From a virus: a stretch of 28,612 bases of DNA. The DNA is taken from IMG/VR virus record IMGVR_UViG_3300034198_014884, positions 1 through 28,612 of that record, one strand, 5' to 3'. Under the pieces are notes generated by a model. The model searched no databases. It was not told the DNA's origin and was given only the letters and a program-made list of their open reading frames with translations. Positions 7,601 through 26,308 of the stretch are shown here, one piece after another (within the stretch, counting starts at the first letter, position 1; the number at the start of each line of letters is the position of its first letter). The translations under genes were made by a program, and so were the position numbers.

Positions 7601-7624
7601 ATTTTAATTCTTAATAAAAAAAAT

Positions 7625-9703: not shown

Positions 9704-12700
9704 ATGCTTTAAAACTATTTAATTCATTGGTGCGAATGGAAATATCATCAATTTGTTTATCACCAATTTTTACACCCATGTTTGGAATCTTCGCATTTAA
9801 TGCAGTCATGATTGCCAAATTTGCATTTAATAAAGCAGTTAATTGATTATCATTCATTCCATTGGTTGCTGGCATTCCGTTCATTCCAACATTTGCTCCT
9901 TGCTGGTTGGTTCTGATTGCTTCAATAGCATTTACCATGTTGGCAACACGTACATCTTTTAATAAATTATTTGGCACAAAGTATTCTGGTCCAGCTTCAG
10001 AAAAAAGCGCATAAGATGGTGAATTTGGTGTCATACCGCCTTTAAGTGGTGAAACTTTTTGTGCATTGTATGTTTTTCCATCTTGTGCGCCAATTATGTT
10101 TCTGAATCCACCATCAAGAAATTGTGGTAAAGGTTCTGCTGCAATCATTGCTTGTTGTGCAATTCCAGCAGCAATTGTTAAAGCCAATAAGAAAGGATTC
10201 GCCAATACTTTTGAAGCAGCCACAGCAGAATTGATTGCAGCTTCAAACATAGCTATTTGCTTCGCACGTTCTGCTTGTTTTCTTTCAACTTCAATGCGCT
10301 TTTTATCACTTGCATCTTGAATTTCTTGTTTTCTTAATTCAAATTCTTCCCTTGTTTGCAATCCAGCAAGCATTCTTTGTTCTTCAGCTTTAATTGCTGT
10401 GTTTTTTTCTGTATCAATATTGGTTAATTGTGTTTTAAAATACGCATCAAATATTTTTGAAGCTGTTGAAGAAATCTGTTGCAAGGAATTAACAATTGAA
10501 TCAAATCTTTCTTGAAACATTTTCAAAGTTTGTTCTTGTGTTTGCGTTTGGATGCCTGAAATTTGTTCTGCTAATGCAGTTTCATTTTCCAATTTTCTTG
10601 CATCATATTCAGCTTGATTGATTTCGCCATCTTTCAATTGCTTTGCAAGTGCTTCAGCTTTTAATTTAGCTTCAAATTCAAGCTGTTCAATCAATACTGC
10701 ATTTAATTCTTCATTTGCTTGTTGGCGCGTTTTCAAATCAGCATCTTTTACAGCTTGTGCAGCAGCATAAGCGCGTGCAACTTTAATATCCATCAAGGCT
10801 TGTTCTAAGCTTTCAGCTTGTGCCAATTGTTGCGCTGTTTGATTTGCTTGAAATTCCAAAAATTCTGCTTCGCCTTTTGCGCGCCATTTTTTGCGAATTC
10901 CATCTTTTCCAAATTCTAATTCTTCAGTTTGTAAAGTTTCAAGTGCTGCTAATTCCTTTGCTGCATCTTCGCCAATTTTTCCCTTTTCCTTGGATAATTC
11001 GCGAGCAGAATCAATTTCTTTTTGATATTTGGATTTTATTCCGCTTTCAAAAACAAACATTTCTTTGGCAAATTCATCTGTGAATTCTGATAATCTTTTT
11101 TCATATTCAAAATCAATTTTGAATTTTTCTGAAGAAGCAATAATATCAGCCAATGTTTTTTGAAGTTCCTTCCATTTTTGATCTGCTGCATCAGCTTGTG
11201 CTTTTGATTTTACAGCGGCTTTTTCAGTTGCAATTCGAGCTTTTTCTTTATCTTCTTCTTCTTTTTTATCTTTGATAAACTTCTTTTTTTCTTCTTCAGA
11301 TTGTGCCTTCAAAACCTTTAAGATTTGTTCTTCAGATTTCATTTGGCCTTTAAAAATATCTTCCATCCAAGAACCTTTGAACAAATTTTGATTTACTTTT
11401 AATCCATTGATTTTATTAATAGATTGTTCAATCAATTGTGTTTGTGTTGCAAATGTTTGCCCAAAATTCAAATTCAATCCTTTGATTCTTCCAGATACAT
11501 CTTTCATTGTGTTTGGTAAATTTTCCAATTGATCTTGTGATTTTTTCAATTGTTCTTCCAAATCGGCTGCATCATCTGTGAATATATCAGCAACAAAATT
11601 TGTTATTCCAAATCGGTTTTGTTCTGTGGCGCGCTGTTCTGCAATTGCCATTGATTGTTGCACCATTTCAGCCAATAATCTTTCAGCTTCAGTTGCTTGA
11701 ACTGCTGCAATAGATTGATCCAATAGATTAGCTGTGATTTCCTTTTGCAAATTACTTAATTCTCTTCCTGAAGCTGATTGTAAATCATAATTTTTGGTTA
11801 ATTCAGGATATTTTGAATTTAATTGTTCAATGATTAATGCGTTTTCATCTTGAATTTTTTTAGATTCCAAATCTGTTAAATTCTTTGATCTTAAAGCTTT
11901 GTTGTTTTGGTCCAATGCCATTGTTAAAGTTGCCGCTTCATCAGCTTGTGATTTCATGCCATCCACAACTTCTTGTGTTAATCGATTCATTCTTGCTTGT
12001 TCATCAATGGCATCACGAATGGAATCACCAAAAAGGAACATCATTGGATTTAAGTAAGTCAATGCTTTGCCGAAATCAAGCAAAACTTCTTCAAATTTCA
12101 ATTCATCCCATTCAGTCAATAAGCCAATAACATCTGAAATCCAATTCAAAACTTCGGTACCAATTTGCACAATTCCGCGCATTGGTGATTGTGCTGCTGA
12201 AGTTGAAAGTGTCAATCCTTCCCATGCAGAAGATAATTTCTTCAAATCGCCATCCAAATTATCATTATTTATTTTTGCTTGAACATAAGCAGTATTTGTT
12301 CCTGTAACAGCAGTATTCAATTTTTCAAAGTGATCAACATTTTGCAATATAGTTTGGCCAACAACAACATTTTCTTTTCCAAAAACGCGCAATAAAGCAG
12401 TTTGATCGCCTGAAATTTTGCTCATTTCTTGCAATCTTTCATTGAATGGCACTGTTTTATCCATCACCAATTCAACATTTACACCAAATCTTTCTAATTC
12501 TTCAACTGCTTTGGCATCCAATGCACTTGCTGTTGACATTGCCAATAATACGTTTCTTAATTGTGTTCCAGCTTCAGCTCCTTTGATGTTTTTTTCTGAA
12601 AGCAATTCAGTCAATGCAACTGATTCTTCAATTGTAACATTGTTGGCATTTGCCACAGTTCCAAATCTATCAATGGAAGCTGTTAAATCTTCAATTTCGG

Positions 12701-13385
12701 CAGCTCCAGCAACAGAACCAGCTGCCAAAGTATTAATGATTCTTTTTGATTGATCAGCACCAAGATTAAATTGATTCATAGAAGATGCCAAAGCTTGTGC
12801 TGCTGGTGCCAATTGCATTCCAGCTGCTTCAGATAAAATGATTGCTTCATGCGTAACTGCTGCCAATGCTTCCCGGTCTTTCAATAAATCTGGGCGCGCG
12901 GAACCAATTAACTTAAATGCTTCAACAGCTTGGATTGCAGAAAGTGTGGTGGTTCTTCCCATTTCCTTTGCCGTTTGTTTATAATATTCAATATCTTGTG
13001 CTGAAGCTCCAGTAATTGATTGCAAAGAAGAAAGGCTTTTTTCCATCTCTTTGTTGTTTCGATACCAGGAACCAACAGCAGCAGAAATTCCTTGAATTCC
13101 AACAGAAATCAATCCAGCAACACCAACAAATGGAAGTGCGCCAGAAATCAATGATTTCATATTGTTTTTCGCTGGAACATACGAATCAGAAACTGCTTTC
13201 ACATCTTGGCGATGTTTTGTAAGTGCTGCTGATGCTGTTCCAAGCTCTTTCAATTTATTCTTGTATTCATCAGAATTCCTTGGAAGCTGGCGAATTTCAT
13301 TGTTTAATTGCTTTACATTTTTTTCAATCTGTTTCAATGTTTGCCCAGCTTGTGTGCCGTCAATAAAGATGTTAGTTTTAGCCAT
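9702..13385 (-). CDS. Tail tape measure protein (TP901 type)
   Basis: At 1227 residues this is the largest gene. It is the scaffold that sets tail length and may enter the host envelope with the DNA. A hydrophobic segment occurs at about residues 80-100 (GVAGLISVGIQGISAAVGS). Next comes the TP901 core: KEMGRTTTLSAIQAVEAF, LSEAAGMQLAPAAQALASS and AEIEDLTASIDRFGTVANA. The centre is long, helical and Glu/Lys/Gln-rich. The C-terminus has a second hydrophobic stretch (PFLLALTIAAGIAQQ) and the usual GGF and SEAGPEYFVP motifs. It follows the gp10-like gene with a one-base overlap (TAATG). No tail assembly chaperone pair is next to it, and its strand is opposite to all other structural genes. Confidence 0.92.
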   Translation of the reverse strand: MAKTNIFIDGTQAGQTLKQIEKNVKQLNNEIRQLPRNSDEYKNKLKELGTASAALTKHRQDVKAVSDSYVPAKNNMKSLISGALPFVGVAGLISVGIQGISAAVGSWYRNNKEMEKSLSSLQSITGASAQDIEYYKQTAKEMGRTTTLSAIQAVEAFKLIGSARPDLLKDREALAAVTHEAIILSEAAGMQLAPAAQALASSMNQFNLGADQSKRIINTLAAGSVAGAAEIEDLTASIDRFGTVANANNVTIEESVALTELLSEKNIKGAEAGTQLRNVLLAMSTASALDAKAVEELERFGVNVELVMDKTVPFNERLQEMSKISGDQTALLRVFGKENVVVGQTILQNVDHFEKLNTAVTGTNTAYVQAKINNDNLDGDLKKLSSAWEGLTLSTSAAQSPMRGIVQIGTEVLNWISDVIGLLTEWDELKFEEVLLDFGKALTYLNPMMFLFGDSIRDAIDEQARMNRLTQEVVDGMKSQADEAATLTMALDQNNKALRSKNLTDLESKKIQDENALIIEQLNSKYPELTKNYDLQSASGRELSNLQKEITANLLDQSIAAVQATEAERLLAEMVQQSMAIAEQRATEQNRFGITNFVADIFTDDAADLEEQLKKSQDQLENLPNTMKDVSGRIKGLNLNFGQTFATQTQLIEQSINKINGLKVNQNLFKGSWMEDIFKGQMKSEEQILKVLKAQSEEEKKKFIKDKKEEEDKEKARIATEKAAVKSKAQADAADQKWKELQKTLADIIASSEKFKIDFEYEKRLSEFTDEFAKEMFVFESGIKSKYQKEIDSARELSKEKGKIGEDAAKELAALETLQTEELEFGKDGIRKKWRAKGEAEFLEFQANQTAQQLAQAESLEQALMDIKVARAYAAAQAVKDADLKTRQQANEELNAVLIEQLEFEAKLKAEALAKQLKDGEINQAEYDARKLENETALAEQISGIQTQTQEQTLKMFQERFDSIVNSLQQISSTASKIFDAYFKTQLTNIDTEKNTAIKAEEQRMLAGLQTREEFELRKQEIQDASDKKRIEVERKQAERAKQIAMFEAAINSAVAASKVLANPFLLALTIAAGIAQQAMIAAEPLPQFLDGGFRNIIGAQDGKTYNAQKVSPLKGGMTPNSPSYALFSEAGPEYFVPNNLLKDVRVANMVNAIEAIRTNQQGANVGMNGMPATNGMNDNQLTALLNANLAIMTALNAKIPNMGVKIGDKQIDDISIRTNELNSFKA

Positions 13386-13768
13386 TACATTTCCATTTTT
13401 GTAGAATCAACTTGAATTTCTTCAATAATCAATTGCGCATAATAATCCGCAAAATCTTCAGAAATTTGTGGTAATTCTTGATTTATAGCCATTGATCGCC
13501 AAGGCTGTTTTTTAATTTTTACTCCTTTTCCAAATGCGTTATCAACTCCAATTTCATGGAATTTACCATACCATTCATAAGAAAATTGAATTCTATCAAC
13601 TTCGCCCTTGGTACTTCGCACACTTGATTTTATTGATTTTAATAAATTTCCTTTTTGCACCAAATCCATTGACTGAATGTTCTGCATCATTTGTTGCGTA
13701 ACATTTGCACCATGCTTTTTTGCAAGTTCGCGTGCTTTGGTGATGTCGTATTTCTTGAAATCTATCAT
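13385..13768 (-). CDS. gp10-like tail completion or virion morphogenesis protein
   Basis: I place the start at the ATG 13768 (MIDFKKYDITKAREL) because the promoter box GAATTTTG lies 5 bases before it; an in-frame ATG at 13786 would put the box inside the gene. The 127-residue product has the general order of HK97 gp10-like and related proteins: an N-terminal helix (KAREL..KHG), a polar helix ending in VQKGNLLKSIKSS, strands with YEWYGKFHEIGV, a positively charged loop (FGKGVKIKKQPW) and a C-terminal helix. Such proteins sit at the head-tail joint or tail end. It precedes the tape measure gene in the same minus-strand operon. The call is by pattern, not search. Confidence 0.6.
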   Translation of the reverse strand: MIDFKKYDITKARELAKKHGANVTQQMMQNIQSMDLVQKGNLLKSIKSSVRSTKGEVDRIQFSYEWYGKFHEIGVDNAFGKGVKIKKQPWRSMAINQELPQISEDFADYYAQLIIEEIQVDSTKMEM

Positions 13769-13773
13769 AATAT

Positions 13774-13809
13774 CAAAATTCAACATTTATACGCGCGCAT
13801 GAAAGGACT
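13774..13809 (-). promoter_or_regulatory. Late-type promoter for the minus-strand tail operon
   Basis: Read on the minus strand: AGTCCT (13809-13804), 22 bases, GAATTTTG (13781-13774), 5 bases, then ATG at 13768. The same two boxes with the same spacing occur at 13944-13979 and 22872-22907. The very short distance to the ATG implies a nearly leaderless mRNA. Confidence 0.65.
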
Positions 13810-13825
13810 TAGATAATAGTGAAAA

Positions 13826-13859
13826 TTTGCATTGAATATTGAGAAAAGCTGTATATTTG
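13826..13859 (+). promoter_or_regulatory. Host-type promoter in the divergent control region
   Basis: TTTG (13826-13829), 22 bases, then TATATTTG (13852-13859), a perfect TAnnTTTG -7 box; a TTG at 13832-13834 gives a 17-base spacing instead. It points toward the terminator at 13910 and not directly at a gene. Confidence 0.55.
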
Positions 13860-13864
13860 CCACA

Positions 13865-13941
13865 AGTAGTTTTGACAAACTTGTTTTTTCATGATTTTTT
13901 TTTAAGCAGAAAAGCTCCATTCGTAAGTTTGGAGCTTTTTT
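13865..13941 (+). ncRNA. Candidate small RNA between the divergent tail operons
   Basis: A transcript from the promoter at 13826-13859 would start near 13865 and end at the terminator at 13941, about 77 bases, with no open reading frame of note. An inverted repeat ACAAGT/ACTTGT (13862-13867, 13879-13884) followed by T6 lies right at its 5' end, and a stronger hairpin with a T run is at its 3' end. It could be a regulatory RNA, an attenuated leader of the plus-strand tail operon, or a by-product of promoter insulation. The start site is inferred. Confidence 0.35.
13910..13941 (+). terminator. Intrinsic terminator upstream of the plus-strand tail operon
   Basis: AAAAGCTCCA (13910-13919) pairs with TGGAGCTTTT (13930-13939) around a 10-base loop, followed by T to 13941. 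It lies in a divergent intergenic region, where no upstream plus-strand gene needs a terminator, and ends 2 bases before the box TGTCCT. Confidence 0.8.
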
Positions 13942-13943
13942 GT

Positions 13944-13979
13944 TGTCCTAACTTTTTTCTGATAAAGTATTGACTTTTG
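13944..13979 (+). promoter_or_regulatory. Late-type promoter for the plus-strand tail operon
   Basis: TGTCCT (13944-13949), 22 bases, GACTTTTG (13972-13979), 4 bases, then ATG at 13984. Boxes and spacing agree with the promoters at 13774-13809 (minus) and 22872-22907, so this seems to be a common late class giving leaderless or nearly leaderless transcripts. Confidence 0.65.
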
Positions 13980-13983
13980 TAAC

Positions 13984-14514
13984 ATGAGTACATATAAAGA
14001 TGCTGTTGAATACTTTAAATCTTTGGCAATAGCCAATGTAGATATTGCGCACACTGATGCTGAAGGAAATAAGAAGTTTTTTCGCTTGGATATGGCTGAA
14101 TTTTATTCAGGAACAGTTGCACAATTGCCTTCTGCTGATGCTGGTCCATTCATGGTATTATTCAACTATATCACTGATTTTTCGCGCATTGATTGTGTGA
14201 ATCAAAAGAAACAGTTTATGTTTATGATTTTGCAAGCTTATTCAAAAGATGATTGGAATGCTGAAGAAGATGCGCTTGATTTGTGCGAAAATGTGATTAA
14301 AGAAGTTGTGAATAAAATCAATTTTGATTCCAAAACTTATTCTGAAAATGAATTTTTGTATGGTGGATTTGAATATGAAAATGTGCGATTAATTCCATCT
14401 GATAAAATAAGAAATTCAACTGGATTATATATTGGCTGGCAATGTTCATTTTTCTTGAATGAGCGAATCAGCACAGCAATTGATCCAACTAAATGGATAA
14501 CCCCTGAACCATGA
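13984..14514 (+). CDS. Putative tail completion or terminator protein
   Basis: The 176-residue protein opens the plus-strand tail operon. It has an N-terminal helix (YKDAVEYFKSLAI), a polar strand section with DAEGNKKFFRLDMAEF, a central MFMILQAYSKDDW stretch and an acidic helix (EDALDLCENVIKEVV). It ends GWQCSFFLNERISTAIDP, a strand-and-turn end that I associate with tail terminator or head-tail joining proteins of Bacteroidota phages. Size and location between the gp10-like gene and the large tail genes support this. No catalytic motif is present. The ATGA overlap with the next gene indicates coupling. An alternative is a minor tail protein of unknown fold; the family is not firmly recognised. 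Confidence 0.45.
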   Translation: MSTYKDAVEYFKSLAIANVDIAHTDAEGNKKFFRLDMAEFYSGTVAQLPSADAGPFMVLFNYITDFSRIDCVNQKKQFMFMILQAYSKDDWNAEEDALDLCENVIKEVVNKINFDSKTYSENEFLYGGFEYENVRLIPSDKIRNSTGLYIGWQCSFFLNERISTAIDPTKWITPEP

Positions 14515-17309
14515 TAACAATTATTAAACAACCTTACATTTGTTCTTTAACAAAAAATGCAATTGACTTTACAGTTCAATCTAATTTGTATTTTGAAACT
14601 GCAACTGTTAAGCCATTTATTCGCTTACTGTTTGAAGAACTTCCAGCAATTGGAACAACTTACAGATTTGCATTTACTAATCCTGAAAATGGAAATAGAG
14701 AAAATATTGATTTGGTTGCTGTGGATGGAACTAATGCAGAAAACTATTTGAATTTATGGCAGATTCCAGGATCAGGATTTGGTGGCACATTGGCAGAATT
14801 TCGTTCAATTATGTTCGAAAAATTGCAACAAAGATTTATTCTAAATGCTTTTTATGATTTAGAATTTCCAATAATAGAGTTTCCTGGAAGCACACCCTCT
14901 TTTATCATTCGTGCAAAAGAAGCAATCCAAGAATTGGTGATTGAATTCACAAGCAATCAACCAGATTCACCTGATAAATACATAAGCGAAGCCAATTCAA
15001 TTGCCTATCATCAACCAGGGGTGCGAGATGGATATGAGTTGAAGGCTTCGCTTTTTTTAGAAACGCAATACAATTCTGGCAATTTTGATTTTGTTACTTC
15101 AATTGATTGTGTATTGGATGAAAATTCAATTTCACATGTTGATGTTTCAAAATATATTGATGCAGAAATTGAAGCTTCTTGGCGCGAATATCCTGTTCCA
15201 TTTGAACAAACATTTGGCTACATTGCGCCAAATTTAAGAAGGTATTATGTTCAATTTTCAGAAACATTTACCAACGAAACACAAGCAATTGAAACAACAA
15301 GTGAAACACTTTTTGCACACTGGGGTGGAGCTTCTTCAGATGATAGTTACACAAGTGATTTAATTGCAGCACAAAACACAAGCGGAAAATTTCTTACTTG
15401 GTGGCCTTCTGGAAAGCGCATTTTGAAAGAACAATCTGATTGGTTGGCTTGGATGAATGGAGCTGATATTCATTACTTAACAATTGATGCAATTGCTTAT
15501 GGTTCTGTGATTTATGAAGGTGAAAGTTTTGTTTATGAATTTACCCAAAATTTGGTGTCAAATAAAAGAATCAATCCATTCGAATCACATATTCAAAACA
15601 TAGGTTTTGATGTGAATTTTAAAGAACAAATAGATCAGTTTCTAACCGATAATCCTGAAATTGAAAGTGTTTACATACAAAGATGGGAAACACGAAAATA
15701 TAAAATAAATGATTTAATAATTGGTTTTTATACAACCAATTATCCGGGTGCAGTTCCTACAAATTATACTTTATCACCTTCTGGTTTTGAAAATGGAAAA
15801 AGAAAATTTGGTTTAGAATCATTATCTCCTTTTATTAAATTTGATGGAGTATGGAGATGTTATATAGGTGGAATTGAAGGATTGGTTTATTGCGGATTTT
15901 TGAATACAGCGGATGAATTCCCTTATGGAGATTTTGAAATTATCGAAAATCCATACATTATAAGTTTTTCTGTAAACGGAAGAAATGTTTCAAATGAAAT
16001 AGAAGCAATTCAAACTTTCTATCCTGAAAAATCTTGTTTAACAAAACAAATTGTTTATTTTAATTCATTTGGTATTCCTGAAAGTTTCATTCTTTCGGCA
16101 AATTGGCAACAAAATATCACCACTTCGCAAGAATTAGCAACACGCACAGAAAGCTATGCGCTTGATACCTTATTTCCACAGAATTATATTTTTGATTCAA
16201 AAGCATTGATCAGTTACCAAGCTGAAACAATGATGTTAAAGAATTTAGAAGCTGAAAGATTGATGCCATTGATAAATTCAACGATTACTTTCATTTTAGA
16301 AAATGGCAACTTCATTCCAGTAATTATCAACGCTGGAACAACTGCTGTTTTTCAAGTAAATGCTTTCTTACAAAAGATTCAATTGGATTTGGTGCGCGCT
16401 AATGAAAGCAATCGCGTTTCTTACTATGAAGTGCTTCCAGATTTTGAGATTTTGAAAACAAATTCAATTGGTTTTTCAATTATTTCATTGAAAAGAAACT
16501 TATTAAACATCACTGATTTTGGTTCAATTAAGATTTATAAAGAAGGAATTGAATTAGAAGAATTTACTTATGCTCCAACACAACAGTGGTACACTGGAAC
16601 ATCAATCACAACTGAAGGCATTTTAACACTTGAATTAACTTGTTCTGTTAATGATGTTCAAAAAATAGTGCGAAAACAAATAAACAATCAATGGGATGAA
16701 TTGAAATATGAAGTTTTTGCAATGGCAAATACTGCTATAATTAGATTCAGTTCAATTTATACCGGTGGCACACCAATGCGCATTGATTGGAGTGATGGAA
16801 CTGTCGATGATGTAACTGTTTCAACAGCTTCTTTGTTTACAAAAAGTTACAGCACAAATGGAAAAAAATTGATTCGTATTTCAAAACCTTCATTTTTTGA
16901 CATCACACAATTCACCATTCAGAACGCATCCAATAATTTTGATTTTTCAAAATTTAATAGTTTAAAAGATTTGATAATCACCAATTGCGCTGCTGGAAAT
17001 TATTATCTTACAGCATTGAATAAATTGGAAGAAATAACTTTCATTAATACAACAATTTATCAATTAAATCTTGGATTTCAAAAAGATTTGGAATTTTTGA
17101 TTTTGAACAACAGTAATATTTCAGTTGATAATTTTGAATTGCTGATTCGTGAAATTTGGAATTTCAGAAAATCTTATGATAATGCCTTTGAAATCAGAAT
17201 AACATCAGAAGTTGTTGTGAATTCAGTTGCACAAGCAATCATTGATGGAACTGGTGCTTATGCTGGTGATGGATTGGCTGATTATGGAATAACACTTGTA
17301 AACATTTAA
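14511..17309 (+). CDS. Large distal tail protein with PKD-like and leucine-rich C-terminus
   Basis: The 932-residue protein starts MITIIKQPYICSLTKNAIDF and has a long beta-rich body with repeated strand patterns (for example DGYELKASLFLETQYNSGNF). Proteins of this type follow the tail genes of Bacteroidota phages and are presumed baseplate or tail-tip components. The last 200 residues differ. A PKD-like domain lies at about 735-795, with the core DWSDG at 759-763 followed by YSTNGKKLIRIS. After it come leucine-rich-repeat-like units at about 800-890 (SLKDLIITNCAAGNYY, LTALNKLEEITFINTT, KDLEFLILNNSNIS). Such domains bind protein or glycan surfaces, so a host-contact role is likely but inferred. 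It is coupled to the preceding gene and lies one base before the next. Confidence 0.65.
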   Translation: MITIIKQPYICSLTKNAIDFTVQSNLYFETATVKPFIRLLFEELPAIGTTYRFAFTNPENGNRENIDLVAVDGTNAENYLNLWQIPGSGFGGTLAEFRSIMFEKLQQRFILNAFYDLEFPIIEFPGSTPSFIIRAKEAIQELVIEFTSNQPDSPDKYISEANSIAYHQPGVRDGYELKASLFLETQYNSGNFDFVTSIDCVLDENSISHVDVSKYIDAEIEASWREYPVPFEQTFGYIAPNLRRYYVQFSETFTNETQAIETTSETLFAHWGGASSDDSYTSDLIAAQNTSGKFLTWWPSGKRILKEQSDWLAWMNGADIHYLTIDAIAYGSVIYEGESFVYEFTQNLVSNKRINPFESHIQNIGFDVNFKEQIDQFLTDNPEIESVYIQRWETRKYKINDLIIGFYTTNYPGAVPTNYTLSPSGFENGKRKFGLESLSPFIKFDGVWRCYIGGIEGLVYCGFLNTADEFPYGDFEIIENPYIISFSVNGRNVSNEIEAIQTFYPEKSCLTKQIVYFNSFGIPESFILSANWQQNITTSQELATRTESYALDTLFPQNYIFDSKALISYQAETMMLKNLEAERLMPLINSTITFILENGNFIPVIINAGTTAVFQVNAFLQKIQLDLVRANESNRVSYYEVLPDFEILKTNSIGFSIISLKRNLLNITDFGSIKIYKEGIELEEFTYAPTQQWYTGTSITTEGILTLELTCSVNDVQKIVRKQINNQWDELKYEVFAMANTAIIRFSSIYTGGTPMRIDWSDGTVDDVTVSTASLFTKSYSTNGKKLIRISKPSFFDITQFTIQNASNNFDFSKFNSLKDLIITNCAAGNYYLTALNKLEEITFINTTIYQLNLGFQKDLEFLILNNSNISVDNFELLIREIWNFRKSYDNAFEIRITSEVVVNSVAQAIIDGTGAYAGDGLADYGITLVNI

Positions 17310-17310
17310 G

Positions 17311-19452
17311 ATGTTAGAAATTAGAATCAATTCAGATATTTTCGATTTGCCTGAAGATATTCAAGTGCCAATTGTGGCTTCCAATCCTTTGGTTTCTGAA
17401 ACAGGATTCAATGAAATTTTCACTTATTCATTTTCATTAAAAGCTTCGCCAAGAAACATTGCTATTTACAATAAGTATTTCCAAAAATCACCAAAGATTA
17501 CACTTTCATTTCAATCGCATAAAATAACAACTGGAGTTGCAAGAATGAAACGCGATTCAAGTGGAATTTCTATAATGATAAAAAATGAAGGTTTGGATTT
17601 GCGACAATCTTTAGAAAATATTGGATTTGATCAAATTGAATTGCAAACAATTCAGGTTTATGATTTTGAAGATACTCCAGAAGAAAAAATTCAAGCTTGG
17701 AATGATTTGATGAATGCTACTTTGCCACAGAATGAAGCTGTGAATGTTGGTGATTTTAAGTTTCCACCAATTGAAGCTTTTCCGCGCGAAGAATGGAAAA
17801 TCAATGGTGAAAATGGTGCTGCCATTAATAAAGGCATGAATCAAAATAATTGGTGCGCCAATCGTTATGATTTGGCAACTGGTGAACATGTGAAAAATAT
17901 TGGTGTATTGCTTCCAATTCAAGAAGTTACTTATTTAGAAGTTGATGATTCTGCTTCGCTTTCTGGTGGCGAATATTTTACAATCAATTCTGCAAATAAT
18001 TTTAATCGATATTATGTTTGGTTCCAGCGCATTTTTGGATTTACACCAATAGGAGTTGATCCAGTTGTTTCAGGCAGAACAGGAATAAGAGTTCAATTAA
18101 CTTATACTGCAACAGCTGAAGAAGTACGTTCACAAATGATTGGTGAAATCTTAAATGTTGTTGAAGATTTTGAGTTTTTTACATTGATTGGAACACCAAC
18201 AAATGGAATCTATATCAGAAATGTAAAAGGTGGAACAACTGATGATTCAGCCATTGGAACTTTGCCTGGTGCGTGGTCCATTACAACTTCAACACAAGGA
18301 ACTGGATTGATTCAAGATTTCACAAATAATTGGCAAACAACTGTTTCTCCTTGCTTAAAAGTGAAACATTTATTTGAAAAATCACTTGAATTTTTGAAGC
18401 TAAATGTGGATAGTTCAATATTAAACAGCATTGATGAATATCAAGAATTGATATATTTTTCTAGTAAAGTTCAAGATTTGCGCCAAGATGAAGATGGCTA
18501 TCAATACAATGTTCATGGTCAATATTTGGATTTGAACAATTTCAAGCCAGCAAATAAACTGATCGATATTTTTAAAACTTTGCGCACGCTTTTTGGAATT
18601 TCATTTGATTTGGTGAATAATAAATTAACCATTCAAAGAATTGCAATCAATACAAAAGCAGCTGATTTATCAAAATTTTGCCTTCCAGATTATACTTATG
18701 AAGAACTTGATTCAAAAGCTTTACTTTTTGGTTATGGCCTTGGCGAAGAATCATGGAAATATTTAGATTTTATCAATGGATTTGCAACTGATAAATTCCA
18801 GGATAAAACAATTGGAATTTCAACAAATGATCCTGTTATTGAAGAAGTGAATTATTTGCCAATGGTTTCACAGAATAAAAAGCCAACAACATTGCATGTT
18901 CCTTTTCTTGCAAAATCTGAAGCTTATAATGAAAATGATTGGATTGCAAATGAAAAGTTAAATATTGGCTTATATCGTGGAAATTATCTGATTGATTTCA
19001 CAATTGGTTCTGATGGTATTAATCCACCAGCAGAATTTTCTGAAGAAAGATTAATTTGCTATAATTCAAATTCTATTCAATCAAATAATGTTGAATATTT
19101 TGGTGAATTCATCAATTATGTTGGCGCATTTGGAACAGCTTCAATTTACTTCAATGATGAAGATTCACATTTAGATATTTATGCAAAGTTTATGAATTTG
19201 GTTAAAATTTACAATCGCCAAATTGAAAAGAATCTTAACCTTTCATTTCAAAACATTCTTGAAATAATGAAATGGAAACAACCGATTCACACTATTCAGC
19301 AGCGCAATATGTCCTTTGTTGGAATTGTAAAAGAGTTGAAATTTACACTATCGAAATCTAATGTTTCGCCAGTTACAATCACTTATTTATCAAATAAGAA
19401 AGTTGGTTCTGGTGATTATAATTCAGATTTCAATGTAGATTTCAATTCTTAA
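17311..19452 (+). CDS. Tail hub/baseplate-like protein with an inserted domain
   Basis: The 713-residue protein begins MLEIRINSDIFDLPEDIQVP followed by SNPLVSETGFNEIFTYSF, a start I know from tail proteins of Bacteroidota phages that often follow the large distal tail protein. The middle contains a separate domain at about residues 207-332. It reads YYVWFQRIFGFTP, GRTGIRVQLTYTATAEEVRS and FFTLIGTPTNGIYIRNVKGG and ends STQGTG, a module found in many unrelated phage tail proteins. The body resumes with SPCLKVKHLFEKSLEFLK and YQYNVHGQYLDLNNF, and ends in polar, mostly beta-like sequence. A role as baseplate hub or tail-tip component is likely from position. There is no signal peptide or enzyme motif. 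Confidence 0.6.
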   Translation: MLEIRINSDIFDLPEDIQVPIVASNPLVSETGFNEIFTYSFSLKASPRNIAIYNKYFQKSPKITLSFQSHKITTGVARMKRDSSGISIMIKNEGLDLRQSLENIGFDQIELQTIQVYDFEDTPEEKIQAWNDLMNATLPQNEAVNVGDFKFPPIEAFPREEWKINGENGAAINKGMNQNNWCANRYDLATGEHVKNIGVLLPIQEVTYLEVDDSASLSGGEYFTINSANNFNRYYVWFQRIFGFTPIGVDPVVSGRTGIRVQLTYTATAEEVRSQMIGEILNVVEDFEFFTLIGTPTNGIYIRNVKGGTTDDSAIGTLPGAWSITTSTQGTGLIQDFTNNWQTTVSPCLKVKHLFEKSLEFLKLNVDSSILNSIDEYQELIYFSSKVQDLRQDEDGYQYNVHGQYLDLNNFKPANKLIDIFKTLRTLFGISFDLVNNKLTIQRIAINTKAADLSKFCLPDYTYEELDSKALLFGYGLGEESWKYLDFINGFATDKFQDKTIGISTNDPVIEEVNYLPMVSQNKKPTTLHVPFLAKSEAYNENDWIANEKLNIGLYRGNYLIDFTIGSDGINPPAEFSEERLICYNSNSIQSNNVEYFGEFINYVGAFGTASIYFNDEDSHLDIYAKFMNLVKIYNRQIEKNLNLSFQNILEIMKWKQPIHTIQQRNMSFVGIVKELKFTLSKSNVSPVTITYLSNKKVGSGDYNSDFNVDFNS

Positions 19453-19455
19453 AAT

Positions 19456-20964
19456 ATGACTGAAGCTGAAGTAATTGATAGAATCAATTCAACAATTAAA
19501 AAAAACGGAAACAGAACAATAACTGGTGATGAAATGAATTTCATTTTGAAAGCCATTATTGAATTGATTGTTGAATCTGGTGGATTAAAGCCATTAGATA
19601 GTGTTCTTGCTGATGGAAATGAAACACTTGAATACGATATTATTCTTACTGAATTAGATCGAATTGTTGTTGGTGCAAATCGCGCTGGATTAGGCAAAGG
19701 AACATTCAACACTGGAAGAGGTGGCGATAAAGGTGTTTCCCTTCAATGCGCTGTGGAATTGGAATTAAACTGGCAAGCTGGATTTTTAAGAGTTTTGGCA
19801 CCAGGTGGTGATGGAACACCATTGATTTTGCAAACTGATTCTGAAATTGTTTATACATCACTTGTTCCAACAACACCAACTTATGGAAGAAGCTTGATTG
19901 ATAAAGATTATCTGGATGGTGAATTAGCAGGAAAAGAAGATACAGCGAATAAAGGTGCTGCAAATGGTTATGCACCATTAAATTCTTCAAGCAAAATAGA
20001 TAACACTTATCTTCCATCTTATGTTGATGATGTTATTGAAGTTGCAAATTTTGCAGCTTTACCACCAACAGGCGAAGTTGGTAAAATTTACATAACGCTT
20101 GATGATAATAAAACCTATCGCTGGAGCGGTTCTGCTTATGTTGAAATTTCCGCTTCATTGGCACTTGGTGAAACTTCAGGTTCTGCTTATCGTGGTGATA
20201 GAGGAAAAATTGCTTATGATCATTCACAAACAACTGGAAATCCACATGGCACAACAGCAACACAAGTTGATGCTTTAAAACGTGATGGGAGCAATGCGAA
20301 TTCTGATATTGACATTAGCAATTATGATTTAAACATCAAAGGTATTAAAGTCAAAGGAACTGCTGGAAATGGCCATTTGAATTTAAAGCACCAATCAATC
20401 GCTTCAACTGCTGGCGGTAATGAATCTGTTCTTTATGCTGATTCTATTGGAAATCCAAGATGGAAAAATGATGGAAATGCGGTTCAAAATGTCATGCTTG
20501 AAAACGCACCAATAACTCCAGGAACTTATAACGAAGTAACCGTAGATTCTAAAGGATTAGTAACAAGTGGTTCTGTAAAGTGGGGTTTACTTAGTGGTAA
20601 TCCAAATTCAGCAACTGGTGTGTTATCGGGTAGTGCAAGATATTACACGTTTGGCGATGGTGTGCCTCAAAATGCTTATACCTTTAGACAGATTGTGTTT
20701 GTTCAGCCAACAATCGTGAAATTCTTTGCAATAGTTACAATCACTTCACAACCAGCAACAGGAAGTTGTGTGTTTACAGTTCAAAAAAATGGAGTTGATA
20801 CTGGGATAGTAATAACAGTTGCAAGTGGTGCCGCTAGTGGCACGTTTTCAGAAATTGCAACACAAGTATCTTTTAGTCAATTTGACACGATTAGCGTAAA
20901 AGCTGTAAATAATGCTGCTTTAACAAGTTGTGTTGTTGCTTCACTTTCAATTGGAATACAATAA
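19456..20964 (+). CDS. Tail fibre protein, likely receptor binding
   Basis: The 502-residue protein begins with a helical attachment section (TEAEVIDRINSTIKKNG, then ITGDEMNFILKAIIELIVES). Residues about 166-270 contain a widespread phage fibre cassette: ANGYAPLNSSSKIDNTYLP, VDDVIEVANFAALPPTGEV, YRWSGSAYVEISASLALGE, then YRGDRGKIAYDHSQTTGNPH. The rest is beta-rich with a compact C-terminal domain from about residue 410 (FRQIVFVQPTIVKFFAIVT, FTVQKNGVDTGIVITVASG) that looks like a jelly-roll or other knob domain, the usual place for receptor binding. The order of trimeric shaft segments and terminal knob fits a tail fibre. Mosaic cassettes like these are known to be exchanged between phages. 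It is followed by the endolysin gene. Confidence 0.75.
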   Translation: MTEAEVIDRINSTIKKNGNRTITGDEMNFILKAIIELIVESGGLKPLDSVLADGNETLEYDIILTELDRIVVGANRAGLGKGTFNTGRGGDKGVSLQCAVELELNWQAGFLRVLAPGGDGTPLILQTDSEIVYTSLVPTTPTYGRSLIDKDYLDGELAGKEDTANKGAANGYAPLNSSSKIDNTYLPSYVDDVIEVANFAALPPTGEVGKIYITLDDNKTYRWSGSAYVEISASLALGETSGSAYRGDRGKIAYDHSQTTGNPHGTTATQVDALKRDGSNANSDIDISNYDLNIKGIKVKGTAGNGHLNLKHQSIASTAGGNESVLYADSIGNPRWKNDGNAVQNVMLENAPITPGTYNEVTVDSKGLVTSGSVKWGLLSGNPNSATGVLSGSARYYTFGDGVPQNAYTFRQIVFVQPTIVKFFAIVTITSQPATGSCVFTVQKNGVDTGIVITVASGAASGTFSEIATQVSFSQFDTISVKAVNNAALTSCVVASLSIGIQ

Positions 20965-20992
20965 TTGATTCCAGAGTAAAAAAAAATATAGT

Positions 20993-21508
20993 ATGTACGA
21001 ATTCCTACCAAAAGAAACAGCACCAAAAATCTTGATTCAAGCAATCAAATTAATTGGAACAAAAGAAATTGTTGGCAAAACACATAATCCAACCATTCTT
21101 GAATGGGCAAAAGAATTGGACCTTGAAAAAATATATACTAATGATGAAATTCCTTGGTGTGGATTATTCGCTGCCATTTGTGCAAAGCGCGCTGGATTGG
21201 AAGTTGTAAAATCGCCATTATGGGCATTAAGCTGGGCAAAGTTTGGAACAAAACAAGAAGTGCCAATGCTTGGTGATATTTTGACATTCAAAAGAAATGG
21301 CGGTGGCCATGTTGGAATTTATGTTGGCGAAGATGATACTTGTTTTCATGTGCTTGGTGGAAATCAATCCAACCAGGTTAATGTTACAAGAATTGAAAAA
21401 AAGCGATTGCATGAAGCAAGAAGAACACCTTGGAAAATAGCACAACCAGCAAATGTTCGCGTTATCAAATTGACATCAAAAGGTGTTATCTCAAAAAATG
21501 AACAATAG
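20993..21508 (+). CDS. Endolysin, TIGR02594/NlpC-P60-like peptidase
   Basis: The 171-residue enzyme would cut peptidoglycan peptides to release progeny. It has the TIGR02594 layout: a helix (ILIQAIKLIGTKEIVG), NPTILEWAKEL, then IPWCGLFAAICAKRAGLE with the presumed nucleophile C56. Next comes PMLGDILTFKRNGGGHVGIY with H106, followed by VGEDDTCFHVLGGNQSN. Cys-His in this order with a polar third residue is the papain-like NlpC/P60 or CHAP arrangement. There is no signal peptide, so it needs a holin; the candidate at 958-1272 is far away, meaning the lysis genes are split. It is the last gene of the tail operon, with a terminator 50 bases after the stop. Confidence 0.85.
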   Translation: MYEFLPKETAPKILIQAIKLIGTKEIVGKTHNPTILEWAKELDLEKIYTNDEIPWCGLFAAICAKRAGLEVVKSPLWALSWAKFGTKQEVPMLGDILTFKRNGGGHVGIYVGEDDTCFHVLGGNQSNQVNVTRIEKKRLHEARRTPWKIAQPANVRVIKLTSKGVISKNEQ

Positions 21509-21558
21509 AATAAATTTTTTAAAAATTAATTAGTTGATTTAGAACTGATTAACCTATA

Positions 21559-21592
21559 AAAAAAGCCGATTTTTCACTAAATTGGCTTTTTT
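21559..21592 (+). terminator. Terminator after the tail/lysis operon
   Basis: AAAAAAGCCGATTT (21559-21572) pairs with AAATTGGCTTTTTT (21579-21592), one G-T wobble, loop of six bases. A-T flanks make it potentially bidirectional. It marks the left edge of the non-coding repeat region. Confidence 0.88.
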
Positions 21593-21595
21593 ATT

Positions 21596-21646
21596 GTTGA
21601 ATCTTGCGAAAATAGAAGATAAAAAGTTGAATCTTGCGAAAAATAG
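21596..21646. repeat. 17-bp direct repeat pair, 30-bp period
   Basis: GTTGAATCTTGCGAAAA occurs at 21596-21612 and again at 21626-21642, both followed by A/T-AG. The 30-base period (about three helical turns) puts both copies on the same DNA face. The pair lies between the terminator and the CCGCTTTT repeats and could be a binding site for a replication or regulatory protein. Confidence 0.8.
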
Positions 21647-21693
21647 CCACTTTTTACTGTTTTTTGCCATTTCCTGAAAGTTGTGTGAAAATT

Positions 21694-21933
21694 CCGCTTT
21701 TCCGCTTTTCCGCTTTTTTATTATATATATATGTTATAATTATATATAAATCAGTTAGTTATCTCTTTATTTTTTTGGGAGCGGTTTTTTTTAAATCCGC
21801 TCCAAAAAAAGCGGAAAAGCGGAAATGTTTTTTTCTGTCTAAAAATTCCGCTCCTTCAATACTGGCGTGGGATTGATGCCAATTAGGGCAAAAACCTAAT
21901 TTATTGATAATCAGCAAGGTGGCAGAAAAGCGG
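21694..21933. other. Candidate replication origin (iteron-like repeats around AT-rich core)
   Basis: This part of a 500-base gap without convincing genes contains three tandem CCGCTTTT units (21694-21717). Next comes an almost pure A/T stretch (21717-21752), then inverse copies AAAAGCGG at 21807-21814, 21815-21822 and 21926-21933. GGAGCGG (21778-21784) and CCGCTCC (21797-21803, 21848-21854) are a related set and form a hairpin. Iterated short sites beside an easily melted region are typical of phage and plasmid origins, and the window encodes a DnaA-like protein and a primase-helicase. No direct evidence of initiation exists; a regulatory or packaging site is also possible. Apart from these repeats, 21934-22012 shows only AT-rich sequence. 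Confidence 0.4.
21699..21825. repeat. 21-bp perfect inverted repeat with internal hairpin
   Basis: Bases 21699-21719 (two CCGCTTTT units plus flanking T) are the exact reverse complement of 21805-21825, with 85 bases between. Inside lies another stem, GGAGCGG (21778-21784) with CCGCTCC (21797-21803), itself flanked by T7 and A7. As DNA this could extrude cruciforms; as RNA it would form a very stable structure. Confidence 0.85.
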
Positions 21934-22015
21934 TTTTTTTTTGCTTTTTAGCTTTCAAAATGAATTTTTTACAGAAAAAAAATAGTTCTGAATCTAAAAT
22001 GAATTAAGTTTTTTG

Positions 22016-22023
22016 TACATTTG
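22016..22023 (+). promoter_or_regulatory. -7 promoter box for the head operon
   Basis: TACATTTG is a perfect TAnnTTTG box only 4 bases before the ATG at 22028, so transcription would begin at or next to the start codon. No good -33 box or GTCCT box is seen upstream, so this is a host-type box without its partner, perhaps activator dependent. Confidence 0.5.
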
Positions 22024-22027
22024 GCAC

Positions 22028-22363
22028 ATGGAAGCACCCCGAATTCTAAAATATACCAATGTTGATAAGTGTGTTCAATTTGGTTTTTATCCAAAAATTT
22101 TGCCTTACAAAAAAGGAACAATTTTGGATTCTCATTTGCCAAAAAAAGTCATTCTTTGTGATTTTGAATCAAGAAAAGAATATCCAGCAGAATTGATTGA
22201 ACTTGTTCCATTCAATATTGCCATTCCTTCTATATTCTCAAAATTGGCGCGCAATCTTGATCCCGAAAATTTAAGACTTCAATTATTGAAAGAATATCCA
22301 ACCAAATCAATTGAAGATTTTGCTTTTTATCTTTATCAATTTAATGCTGCGCCAAATGAATGA
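22028..22363 (+). CDS. Hypothetical protein, head operon
   Basis: I take the ATG at 22028 as the start because a -7 box ends 4 bases earlier; a TTG at 22013 would lie upstream of the box. The 111-residue product starts MEAPRILKYTNVDKCVQFGF. It has a beta-like first half (ILPYKKGTILDSHLPKKVI, LCDFESRKEYPAELIELVP) and a helical second half (FSKLARNLDPENLRLQLLKE) ending DFAFYLYQFNAAPNE. No motif is recognised. It overlaps the next gene by 8 bases. Position just before the protease and capsid genes suggests a morphogenesis or accessory role, but this is inference. Confidence 0.6.
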   Translation: MEAPRILKYTNVDKCVQFGFYPKILPYKKGTILDSHLPKKVILCDFESRKEYPAELIELVPFNIAIPSIFSKLARNLDPENLRLQLLKEYPTKSIEDFAFYLYQFNAAPNE

Positions 22364-22868
22364 ATACACAATAACAGTCAAAATTCCGATTAGATCATAT
22401 TTAAAGAAATTCATTGCTGGTTCCAATAATGTGGAACCATTCAAAGTTTCAATTAAAAGATGCCATTTTTCAGCAATCATTCTGGAACCATTGCAAAAGG
22501 AAAAAGTAATTGTAAAAGAAGTTGCAAAAATTCGCTGGAATGATGAATTGATTTGTGCATTTGATACTGATTCATTGAAAGAAAAGAAATTTTGGATTTC
22601 AATTGAAGCAATGAATTCAATTGATTTCAGATTAAAATCATTATTTGATCAATCATTGATTGATTTCATAAACATCAACCATAAGCGCGGAACAACCATT
22701 GAAGAAAACATTTTGAAATTTCTGAATTATTATCAAATTTCTGAAGATGATCTTTCAGTTGAAACAGCGCAAAAAATGTATTATCGCGCACGCTATCCAC
22801 AGCATGTAATTTCATCAAAAAAGCGAAAAGAAGTCATTGATTCACAGCCTAAATTATTTGATTATTAA
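22356..22868 (+). CDS. Hypothetical protein, head operon
   Basis: The ATG at 22356 (MNEYTITVKIPIRSYLKKFI) overlaps the preceding stop by 8 bases and is favoured over an upstream start inside that gene. The 170-residue product has an N-terminal strand, a basic helix (RSYLKKFI), a polar beta section (VEPFKVSIKRCHFSAIILEP), a central FWISIEAMNSIDFRLKSLFD stretch and an acidic helical end with KMYYRARYP. It reads like a small DNA-binding or structural protein but matches no family I know. Its stop is followed by the late-type promoter of the protease gene, so it closes a two-gene unit. Confidence 0.6.
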   Translation: MNEYTITVKIPIRSYLKKFIAGSNNVEPFKVSIKRCHFSAIILEPLQKEKVIVKEVAKIRWNDELICAFDTDSLKEKKFWISIEAMNSIDFRLKSLFDQSLIDFININHKRGTTIEENILKFLNYYQISEDDLSVETAQKMYYRARYPQHVISSKKRKEVIDSQPKLFDY

Positions 22869-22871
22869 TTC

Positions 22872-22907
22872 TGTCCTTTATTCACTGTTTATTAATAGTG
22901 AATTTTG
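22872..22907 (+). promoter_or_regulatory. Late-type promoter for the protease/capsid operon
   Basis: TGTCCT (22872-22877), 22 bases, GAATTTTG (22900-22907), 5 bases, then ATG 22913. It agrees in boxes and spacing with the promoters at 13774-13809 (minus) and 13944-13979. An inverted repeat TTCACT/AGTGAA (22881-22886, 22897-22902) lies in the spacer and could be an operator. Confidence 0.65.
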
Positions 22908-22912
22908 GCTTC

Positions 22913-24160
22913 ATGAATGCACTACTTCGCACAATTATTTCTTCAGCTTGGGCAATCGATGAAGCTTATGCTTTATCTGTAAATCCTTTGATGCAAAAAG
23001 TTCTATCTGGTGAAACAATAGATCTTTCGAAAATGCTTAAATCTTCAACTGAAGTTGAAATGATTGCAGCAAATTACAATGGTTTAAATATTGCTGTTGT
23101 TGAAATTGAAGATGTATTGATGCGCGAAGATCAAATGTGTGGTGGAATGGGAACTGAATCAATTGATGCGCTGTTAAAAGAATTAGCTTCCAATCCTTCA
23201 GTTGGTGCTGTTATTCTTTCTTTCAATTCACCAGGTGGTCAATCAGAATATATTGAAAATGTAGCAAAAACAATTGGCGATTATCCAAAACCAATTGTTT
23301 CTTGGGTTTCAGGTTCTTGTGCTTCTGCTGCTTATTGGCTGGCTTCAAAATCTGATGCTATTTTCACGAGCGCAAAAACAGATCGTGTTGGTTCTATTGG
23401 AACAATGATTTCATACTACAAAGCAAATCCTGAAGCTGTTGATCAACCAAGATATTTGCAAGTTAATGTTTATGCTTCAAGATCTATTGATAAAAATCGC
23501 GCTTTTGAAGATATGCTTGATGGTGAATATGAAAGAATAATTAAAGAAGTTCTTGATCCAATCAATGCTGTTTTTATTGAAGATGTTCAAACAGGGCGCG
23601 CGCAAATTGATGAATCAACATTGACTGGTAAAATGTACTATTCTTTTGATTCTCAAAAATTAGGATTAACAGATGGAATCAAATCATTTGATGAAGTTGT
23701 TGCCTATGTAACAGAACAAATCGCTAATTCTCAAAACCAAAATACAATGGGATTATTTTCTAAACACAAAAAACCACAACCAATGAAAAATGAATTATTT
23801 TCAAGCATCTTGGAAAGAGATGTGAATGATGGTGAAATTCTTTCAGCTGATGATTTGCAAAAAGTGCAATCACATATTGAAGGATTAAACCATTTAGCTC
23901 CAGCAGCAGTTGTTGAAGATCTAATCAATAAAGCAGAAGAAGCACCAGTTCTTTCTATTGCTGATGTTGTTGCAAATGCTGTAAGCGAATCAATGAAATC
24001 TTTTAACCAAAGATTTGAAGCAATTGAAACTGCATTGGAAATTAAACCAGCAGCAACTTCAACTGTAACAGCTCCAGTTAGCACAGATGAAAAATCTTTT
24101 GATGATGAACCTTGGAATGATCCAAACAGATCTTACAATAAGCTTGTTCATGGTCTTTAA
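22913..24160 (+). CDS. S49 (SppA-like) capsid maturation protease with scaffold-like C-terminus
   Basis: The start is taken at ATG 22913 (MNALLRTIISSAW), directly after the promoter box; a GTG at 22898 is the alternative. Of 415 residues, about 1-270 form a SppA/S49 peptidase: VGAVILSFNSPGGQSEYIEN, WVSGSCASAAYWLAS with the presumed nucleophile S138, and TDRVGSIGTM. In phages such enzymes cleave scaffold and capsid proteins during head maturation. From about residue 279 the sequence changes to polar, acidic helix (MGLFSKHKKPQP, later LSADDLQKVQSHIEGLNHLA), ending in a Pro/Thr-rich segment. This resembles a scaffold domain. In-frame ATGs at 23747 and 23783 could make the scaffold part alone, as in the lambda C/Nu3 arrangement. 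Confidence 0.85.
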   Translation: MNALLRTIISSAWAIDEAYALSVNPLMQKVLSGETIDLSKMLKSSTEVEMIAANYNGLNIAVVEIEDVLMREDQMCGGMGTESIDALLKELASNPSVGAVILSFNSPGGQSEYIENVAKTIGDYPKPIVSWVSGSCASAAYWLASKSDAIFTSAKTDRVGSIGTMISYYKANPEAVDQPRYLQVNVYASRSIDKNRAFEDMLDGEYERIIKEVLDPINAVFIEDVQTGRAQIDESTLTGKMYYSFDSQKLGLTDGIKSFDEVVAYVTEQIANSQNQNTMGLFSKHKKPQPMKNELFSSILERDVNDGEILSADDLQKVQSHIEGLNHLAPAAVVEDLINKAEEAPVLSIADVVANAVSESMKSFNQRFEAIETALEIKPAATSTVTAPVSTDEKSFDDEPWNDPNRSYNKLVHGL

Positions 24161-24165
24161 TTTTG
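24158..24165 (+). promoter_or_regulatory. -7 promoter box before the major capsid gene
   Basis: TAATTTTG (24158-24165) matches TAnnTTTG and begins on the stop codon of the protease gene, 23 bases before ATG 24189. No clear -33 box is present. It would give the capsid gene extra, independent expression. Confidence 0.45.
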
Positions 24166-24188
24166 TAACCTTTTAATTTTTATATACA

Positions 24189-25310: not shown

Positions 25311-25317
25311 AACCTTT

Positions 25318-25350
25318 GCCAGCTGATTGAAAGATTGGCTGGCTTTTTTT
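25318..25350 (+). terminator. Terminator/attenuator after the capsid gene
   Basis: GCCAGC (25318-25323) pairs with GCTGGC (25338-25343), with inner wobble pairs extending it, followed by T7 (25344-25350). It begins 8 bases after the capsid stop and precedes more head genes, so partial read-through is likely. Confidence 0.85.
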
Positions 25351-25368
25351 AAATCTTATAAAAAAAAC

Positions 25369-25740: not shown

Positions 25741-25773
25741 TTAAATTATTCACAAACACAAAAAATTTAAACC

Positions 25774-26304: not shown

Positions 26305-26308
26305 TCTA

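What the first reader, a model, noticed from the sequence alone, without database searches (positions are those of the whole stretch)
13774..22907. A phage-specific late promoter class: nGTCCT-N22-GAnTTTTG placed 4-5 bases before ATG
Three structural operons, on both strands, share the same two boxes with identical 22-base spacing: minus 13809-13774 (AGTCCT...GAATTTTG, ATG 13768), plus 13944-13979 (TGTCCT...GACTTTTG, ATG 13984) and plus 22872-22907 (TGTCCT...GAATTTTG, ATG 22913). GTCCT is rare in this AT-rich sequence; by eye I found only two others on the plus strand (about 19313 and 26455), both inside genes and without a proper second box. The -7-like GAnTTTTG differs from the host TAnnTTTG at its first base, as if a phage factor replaces -33 recognition. 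The start site would coincide with the ATG, giving leaderless mRNAs.
Basis: partly seen in the sequence, partly recalled or inferred. Interest (0 to 1): 0.72.

Follow-up and report, generated by a model that had tools for sequence, protein, structure and literature searches.

The report
Phage late promoters with GTCCT box
Three gene-switch sites in this virus of Bacteroidota bacteria belong to a family of late-gene promoters found in many related viruses, apparently turned on by a previously undescribed small viral protein encoded beside one of them.

Summary
Three of the window's five GTCCT sit in it. Within the window alone this is weak once free choice of boxes is allowed. Relatives make it decisive. 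In 24 related phages plus Polaribacter phage Leef_1, an ATG lies 39 nt after GTCCT in 47 cases against about 2 per other offset. Spacing to a [G/C]AnnTTTG -7 box is fixed at 22.

I read it as a phage late-promoter class. GTCCTTT replaces the host -33 element, and a weakened -7 lies where host sigma-A expects it, so transcription should start at the ATG (leaderless).

The likely activator is a ~170-aa protein of no known family (22356-22868), next to site 3. Its family is in every motif-bearing phage long enough to tell, in 0 of 26 genomes with chance hits, and predicted motif-bearing prophages in a motif-blind draw. Flavobacterium phages 6H and laban6-1 carry diverged members and diverged boxes (GTCTT, GTCAC) at nearly the same distance from -7.

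Transcription, timing and DNA binding are inferred. A beta-clamp-like tail (QLxLF) in half the family hints at replication coupling.

The parts
13774..13808 (-). Late promoter 1: GTCCTTT box 13808-13802, N22 after GTCCT, -7 GAATTTTG 13781-13774; drives the 127-aa gene and tape measure gene; start ATG 13768
   Evidence: orthologous copies in G001 and G002 with drifted spacer. An in-frame upstream ATG at 13786 lies inside the promoter and is not used if transcription starts at 13768.
13945..13979 (+). Late promoter 2: GTCCT 13945-13949, N22, -7 GACTTTTG 13972-13979; start ATG 13984 (39 nt after G of GTCCT)
22873..22907 (+). Late promoter 3: GTCCTTT 22873-22879, N22 after GTCCT, -7 GAATTTTG 22900-22907; start ATG 22913 of S49-type head maturation protease and head operon
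22356..22868 (+). Candidate late activator, 170 aa (ORF call 22344-22868): N-terminal strand plus two helices, helical C-terminal half ending in a basic helix, C-terminal QPKLF tail
   Evidence: homologs in 21 of 24 motif phages at first pass, G034 weakly; AlphaFold pLDDT 77 and 83.7; no Pfam, PHROG or NCBIfam assignment and no PDB fold match
9702..13768 (-). Late operon 1: 127-aa gene 13385-13768 and tail tape measure protein 9702-13385
13984..21508 (+). Late operon 2: tail region (176, 932, 713, 502 aa, then a CHAP/baseplate lysozyme-like 171 aa)
22913..28612 (+). Late operon 3: head maturation protease, 373-aa protein shared by 22 of 24 phages, further head genes, start of terminase-like gene 27791

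Best explanation
The three sites are promoters for the phage's structural operons and belong to a widespread class in tailed phages and prophages of Bacteroidota. Host RNA polymerase with its main sigma factor contacts a weak -7 box (SAnnTTTG instead of TAnnTTTG). It fires efficiently only when a phage-coded activator is bound to GTCCTTT at -39 to -33, where the host -33 element would be. The activator is most likely the 170-aa protein encoded at 22356-22868, made before the late genes. Transcription starts at or one base from the ATG, giving leaderless late mRNAs. Shown: motif, geometry, conservation, co-occurrence of the protein family. Inferred: promoter activity, late timing, start site, DNA binding by this protein. 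I put about 0.9 on the promoter class and about 0.7 on this protein being its factor.
For: Exact sites. Conserved at orthologous places in G001 and G002 while spacers drift. A scan of IMG/VR finds the motif before recurring phage gene families; 49 sites in 33 records versus 1 control, spacing always 22. Independent of -7: ATG 39 nt after GTCCT 47 times, background 2.2. Related or same-host phage stretches without a GTCCT-type promoter system show none at 39 nt and one chance hit at 40 nt in about 350 kb. The candidate family is the only protein shared by nearly all motif phages that is neither head, tail nor packaging-like. It is present in 16 of 19 genomes with motif sites before phage-type genes and 0 of 26 with chance hits; a 17th, a Marinilabiliaceae prophage, has a weak diverged match plus 3 boxes. 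A motif-blind draw of 394 further Bacteroidota genomes gave 4 new family members: the three with enough flanking sequence, and a second Hymenobacter prophage, each carry at least two boxes at the right distance. Leef_1, a cultivated phage, has the family protein (gp39) and six GTCCTTT boxes. 6H and laban6-1 have diverged family members; unbiased 7-mer enrichment upstream of their late genes finds CATGTCTTAAA (4 sites, N21) and ATGTCACAA (5 sites, N22), followed by a -7-like box in nearly all cases. Boxes found without a GAnTTTTG criterion start with C 26, G 12, T 8, A 0. Host -7 lies at -12 to -5 (PMC9723704).
Against: No transcript, binding or genetic data. Co-occurrence of protein and box is confounded by shared descent of these phages. 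The fold has no convincing match in PDB; ribbon-helix-helix hits in viral models are weak, E about 0.3. A LuxR/sigma-like protein is shared by 11 of 24 phages and could act instead in those. 6H has spacing 21 and one -7 that fits poorly (CAATATTT). In two contigs (G001, G027) the protein was not found, plausibly because they are fragments.
Confidence: 0.66

Rival explanations
1. The promoter class is real, but the box is read by another phage factor: the LuxR/ECF-sigma-like protein of the early region, or an early HTH protein such as window 7058-7600.
For: G030 38898-39470 matches PHROG transcriptional regulator and sigma factor families; Leef_1 gp22, laban6-1 gp54 and 6H gp61 are annotated as LuxR-like or transcriptional regulators; window 7058-7600 weakly resembles the DnaA C-terminal HTH.
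Against: The LuxR-like family is in 11 of 24 motif phages and absent from the window and G002; the DnaA-like protein is in 3 of 24.
Confidence: 0.17
2. GTCCT is an operator for a phage repressor or host regulator overlapping ordinary sigma-A promoters, keeping late genes silent rather than activating them.
For: The box overlaps the -33 position, and many carriers are prophages, where repression is useful.
Against: The -7 box avoids the host consensus first base and no host TTG lies at -33, so there would be little to repress; spacing to -7 is rigid, as expected for polymerase contact.
Confidence: 0.1
3. The motif is a translation-start or other non-promoter element placed before ATG.
For: Fixed distance to the ATG in most phages.
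Against: In 6H and laban6-1 the box-to-minus-7 distance is kept while the ATG lies roughly 15-45 nt further downstream, so the unit is box plus -7, not box plus ATG; -7 matches host sigma-A in form and place.
Confidence: 0.03
4. Chance, picked by eye.
For: Free choice of two words and spacing gives many three-copy pairs in shuffled sequence.
Against: 47 cases at one offset versus 2.2 background over relatives; a motif-blind prediction was confirmed.
Confidence: 0.01

Closest known systems
T4 middle promoters (MotA box, sigma appropriation by AsiA/MotA)
   Same: Phage box replaces the host -35/-33 element, host -10/-7 recognition kept, phage activator (PMC6755090, PMC2988021)
   Different: MotA box centred near -30, needs AsiA, drives middle genes; here the box is -39 to -33, drives structural genes, mRNAs look leaderless, and the candidate protein has no match to known families
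T4 late transcription (gp55, gp33, sliding clamp gp45)
   Same: Late structural genes; C-terminal clamp-binding tails on the transcription factors; coupling to replication (PMC2988020, PMC7892883)
   Different: T4 late promoters have only a -10 element read by a phage sigma (own knowledge); here both -33-region and -7 boxes, and the tail is present in only about half the family
Mu C/Mor and P2 Ogr/Delta late activators
   Same: Small phage proteins that activate late promoters of host RNA polymerase (own knowledge)
   Different: No sequence match of the candidate to any such Pfam family; box here abuts -33 rather than lying further upstream
Host Bacteroidota sigma-A promoters (TTG at -33, TAnnTTTG at -7)
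   Same: -7 form and position, -12 to -5 (PMC9723704)
   Different: First base of -7 is G/C, no TTG at -33, GTCCTTT in its place, start at ATG; only 5.5% of F. psychrophilum mRNAs are leaderless (PMC9723704)
Helgolandviridae and Duneviridae phages (Leef_1, 6H, laban6-1)
   Same: Carry the candidate activator family and box-plus-minus-7 promoters before late genes
   Different: Boxes GTCTT and GTCAC in 6H and laban6-1, leadered mRNAs; the Leef_1 paper does not mention promoters (PMC8776804)

Membership tests
Host sigma-A promoter | TAnnTTTG at -7 | tested here: not met
   AnnTTTG kept, but first base is G in all three window sites; C/G in 38 of 46 sites found without a GAnTTTTG criterion
Host sigma-A promoter | TTG at -33, about 17-23 nt before -7 | tested here: not met
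   No TTG at that distance in the three sites (sequence)
Phage activator-dependent promoter with box replacing -35/-33 | Conserved box at -33 region with rigid spacing to -7 | tested here: met
   GTCCTTT, spacing 22 in all 49 sites and at modal ATG offset 39
Phage activator-dependent promoter with box replacing -35/-33 | Cognate phage protein binds the box and activates transcription | not testable with these tools
   Candidate found by co-occurrence only
T4 MotA/AsiA system | MotA and AsiA homologs | tested here: not met
   No Pfam or PHROG match of this kind among the window proteins scanned
T4-type clamp-coupled late transcription | C-terminal sliding-clamp-binding motif on the transcription factor | tested here: inconclusive
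   QLxLF-like tail in 12 of 21 family members versus 9 of 772 other phage proteins; consensus QL(S/D)LF from PMC9690074; binding untested and members not independent
T4-type clamp-coupled late transcription | Phage sigma (gp55-like) and phage clamp | tested here: not met
   No sigma or clamp family found among the window proteins scanned
Mu C/Mor or P2 Ogr activators | Family domain in candidate | tested here: not met
   No such Pfam or NCBIfam hit in family members scanned
Leaderless mRNA | Transcription start at the start codon | not testable with these tools
   Predicted from -7 position and ATG offset 39; no 5'-end data

The most novel reading that the evidence does not exclude
The candidate activator couples late transcription to DNA replication by docking on the host beta sliding clamp through its C-terminal QLxLF tail, a bacterial-clamp counterpart of T4 gp33/gp55, evolved independently in Bacteroidota phages.
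Probability: 0.15. Interest if true: 0.9.

Novelty: new variant of a known kind. Interest (0 to 1): 0.72.

Why it matters
Little seems to be known about how tailed phages of Bacteroidota turn on late genes; my searches of the open-access library found no described late promoter or activator for them. This gives a specific, testable promoter grammar and a candidate activator family with no known fold match, spanning hosts from Flavobacterium and Sphingobacterium to Hymenobacter, Spirosoma, Saprospiria and Marinilabiliaceae. Cultivated phages (Leef_1, 6H, laban6-1) make it testable now. It would also supply phage-dependent promoters for genetic tools in Bacteroidota, and a natural set of leaderless late mRNAs in bacteria that do not use Shine-Dalgarno sites.

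Tried and rejected
Single-protein scans for relatives gave few loci; the DNA pattern scan was what opened the family. The DnaA_C-like protein 7058-7600 was the first activator candidate but is in only 3 of 24 phages. The LuxR/sigma-like family was rejected as the common factor (11 of 24). Fold searches of two models gave no PDB relative. The sRNA-like stretch 13863-13942 is only in the three closest phages, so it is not part of the class. Flavobacterium phage 6H was chosen as a negative control because earlier tblastn queries had not shown the family there, but a profile search found a diverged member; it then became a positive case with a diverged box. Sabulibacter (G066) and Bacteroidia SKYB87 (G059) motif hits have no family member and are probably chance. 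In the look-elsewhere test the window alone was not significant.
Full report
1. Observation. The three sites are exactly as reported: minus 13808-13774, plus 13945-13979, plus 22873-22907, each GTCCT-N22-GAnTTTTG, followed after 4 or 5 bases by ATG. GTCCT occurs five times in the whole window on both strands and three of those are these sites. The exact motif is expected 0.002-0.005 times per simulated window. However, if both words and the spacing may be chosen freely, simulated windows also hold hundreds of three-copy pairs, so the window by itself would not prove the point.

2. Close relatives. Two IMG/VR contigs carry the sites at orthologous places: G001 (about 97% identical, two sites; it does not reach the third) and G002 (about 77%, all three). 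The alignments show the boxes kept while spacers drift.

3. Wider scan. A scan of IMG/VR for GTCCT-N22-GAnTTTTG-N4/5-ATG returned hits in which the ATG opens one of a few recurring phage gene families: an about 100-aa gene, an about 200-aa gene, and S49-type head proteases. In 33 of these records there are 49 sites with spacing 22 and one hit of the reversed control; spacings 21 and 23 gave none. Each record was selected by one site, so the 16 additional sites are the unbiased part.

4. A test that ignores -7. Across 24 phages plus Leef_1, I counted the distance from GTCCT to any ATG opening at least 60 codons. Distance 39 has 47 cases, 38 and 40 have 11 each, other distances about 2.2. Twenty-one control stretches (tail-gene relatives and the Flavobacterium phages FCV-1 and 6H) have no case at 39 and one at 40. 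The consensus is TGTCCTTT, with SAnnTTTG starting 22 nt after GTCCT, 4 nt, ATG. In boxes not matching GAnTTTTG, the first -7 base is C 26, G 12, T 8, A 0, whereas background xAnnTTTG in these phages is 40% A and 22% T.

5. Leaderless prediction. In F. psychrophilum the sigma-A -7 box spans -12 to -5 and only 5.5% of mRNAs are leaderless (PMC9723704). With the modal distance of 39, SAnnTTTG spans -12 to -5 if +1 is the A of ATG, and GTCCTTT spans -39 to -33. So host polymerase with normal geometry would start at the start codon. In the window, site 2 fits exactly and sites 1 and 3 give one extra base. Sites 1 and 3 also have an in-frame start codon inside the promoter (ATG 13786, GTG 22898), which gene callers may choose wrongly.

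6. Candidate activator. Iterated profiles from every window ORF, and from the ORFs of three other phages, show which proteins the motif phages share. Apart from proteins that are structural or look so, only one family is universal: window 22344-22868 (start probably 22356), in 21 of 24, plus a weak C-terminal match in G034; the remaining two contigs are fragments. It sits just upstream of the head operon and its promoter. No Pfam, PHROG or NCBIfam family applies. Two AlphaFold models (pLDDT 77 and 83.7) show a strand followed by two helices at the N-terminus and a helical second half ending in a basic helix; PDB has no match, and viral models give Leef_1 gp39 (E 3e-9) and weak ribbon-helix-helix hits.

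7. Co-occurrence in host genomes. A GTDB scan for a stricter motif gave 106 hits. By ORF context about 20 looked like prophage sites. The activator family is in 16 of 19 of those genomes and in 0 of 26 genomes with chance hits, 11 of which carry Bacteroidota-type names. A Marinilabiliaceae genome missed by the first profile has a weak diverged match and three boxes. Hosts by record title include Pedobacter, Sphingobacterium, Flavobacterium, Aquimarina, Hymenobacter, Spirosoma, Flavilitoribacter, Plebeiobacterium and Crocinitomix. The sorting into prophage and chance hits was mine, made before the protein search.

8. A motif-blind prediction. Drawing about 400 Bacteroidota genomes and searching only for the protein gave four new members. 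The three with enough flanking sequence, and a second Hymenobacter prophage, each carry at least two GTCCT boxes 38-40 nt before an ORF start on the expected strand.

9. Diverged pairs. Leef_1 (Helgolandviridae) has family member gp39 and six GTCCTTT boxes with varied -7 sequences. Flavobacterium phage 6H has a diverged member (E 3e-8) and no GTCCT promoter; instead CATGTCTTAAA occurs four times, all on the late strand before late genes, 21 nt from a -7-like box. Phage laban6-1 has a member 36% identical to that of 6H; unbiased 7-mer enrichment upstream of its late genes picks ATGTCACAA, with five of six genome copies of ATGTCAC there, each 22 nt before a -7-like box (TACTTTCG, AAACTTTG, AATCTTTG, TAAACTTG, GAATTTTG). 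In these two phages the ATG lies roughly 15-45 nt further on. The unit is therefore box plus -7, not box plus ATG, which argues for a promoter and against a translation signal. The GTC core is kept while the next bases change as the protein diverges.

10. Mechanism and alternatives. The simplest model is a class of activator-dependent promoters like T4 middle promoters in principle (PMC6755090): a phage protein takes the place of -33 recognition and a sub-consensus -7 keeps host polymerase from firing alone. What is not shown: transcription, timing, binding. The main rival is another phage factor; a LuxR/sigma-like family is in 11 of 24 phages and absent from the window.

11. A more novel possibility. 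Twelve of 21 family members end in QLxLF or QLxLx[LFY]-like tails, against 9 of 772 other proteins of these phages. The bacterial clamp-binding consensus is QL(S/D)LF (PMC9690074). T4 late factors use C-terminal clamp-binding tails to couple late transcription to replication (PMC2988020). Short-form members lack the tail and members are related by descent, so this is a lead, not a result.

12. Verdict. Observation confirmed, interpretation supported in its main points and refined; a candidate activator is added. It is a new variant of a known kind.

Noticed in passing
window 13827-13942 (+): Host-type promoter (TATATTTG at 13852) followed by an about 80-nt stretch with a strong terminator, ending 2 nt before the GTCCT box of promoter 2; nearly identical in G001 and G002 while flanks drift, fold z -3.6, no Rfam match. 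A possible phage small RNA between the two divergent late promoters.
   Followed up: partly
window 6640-9663: Region differs from G001, which is otherwise about 97% identical; it includes a DNA cytosine methyltransferase (8237-9673) absent from G001 and G002, suggesting a recently swapped module.
   Followed up: no
window 7058-7600 (+): 180-aa early protein with weak DnaA C-terminal HTH similarity, found only in G002 and G048 besides the window.
   Followed up: partly
L165 18898-19470 (-), L202 19714-20301, L364 41889-42461 (-), L363 44905-45462 (-): LuxR/sigma-like early regulator shared by 11 of 24 motif phages; Leef_1, laban6-1 and 6H carry proteins annotated similarly; possible early or middle regulator.
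   Followed up: partly
L179 8208-8738, L165 11455-12288: Other phage proteins with C-terminal beta-clamp-like tails (SQLALFN, EQLTLFNN); function unknown.
   Followed up: no
window 9676-9701: Strong hairpin between the converging methyltransferase and tape measure genes, called on both strands, probably a bidirectional terminator.
   Followed up: no
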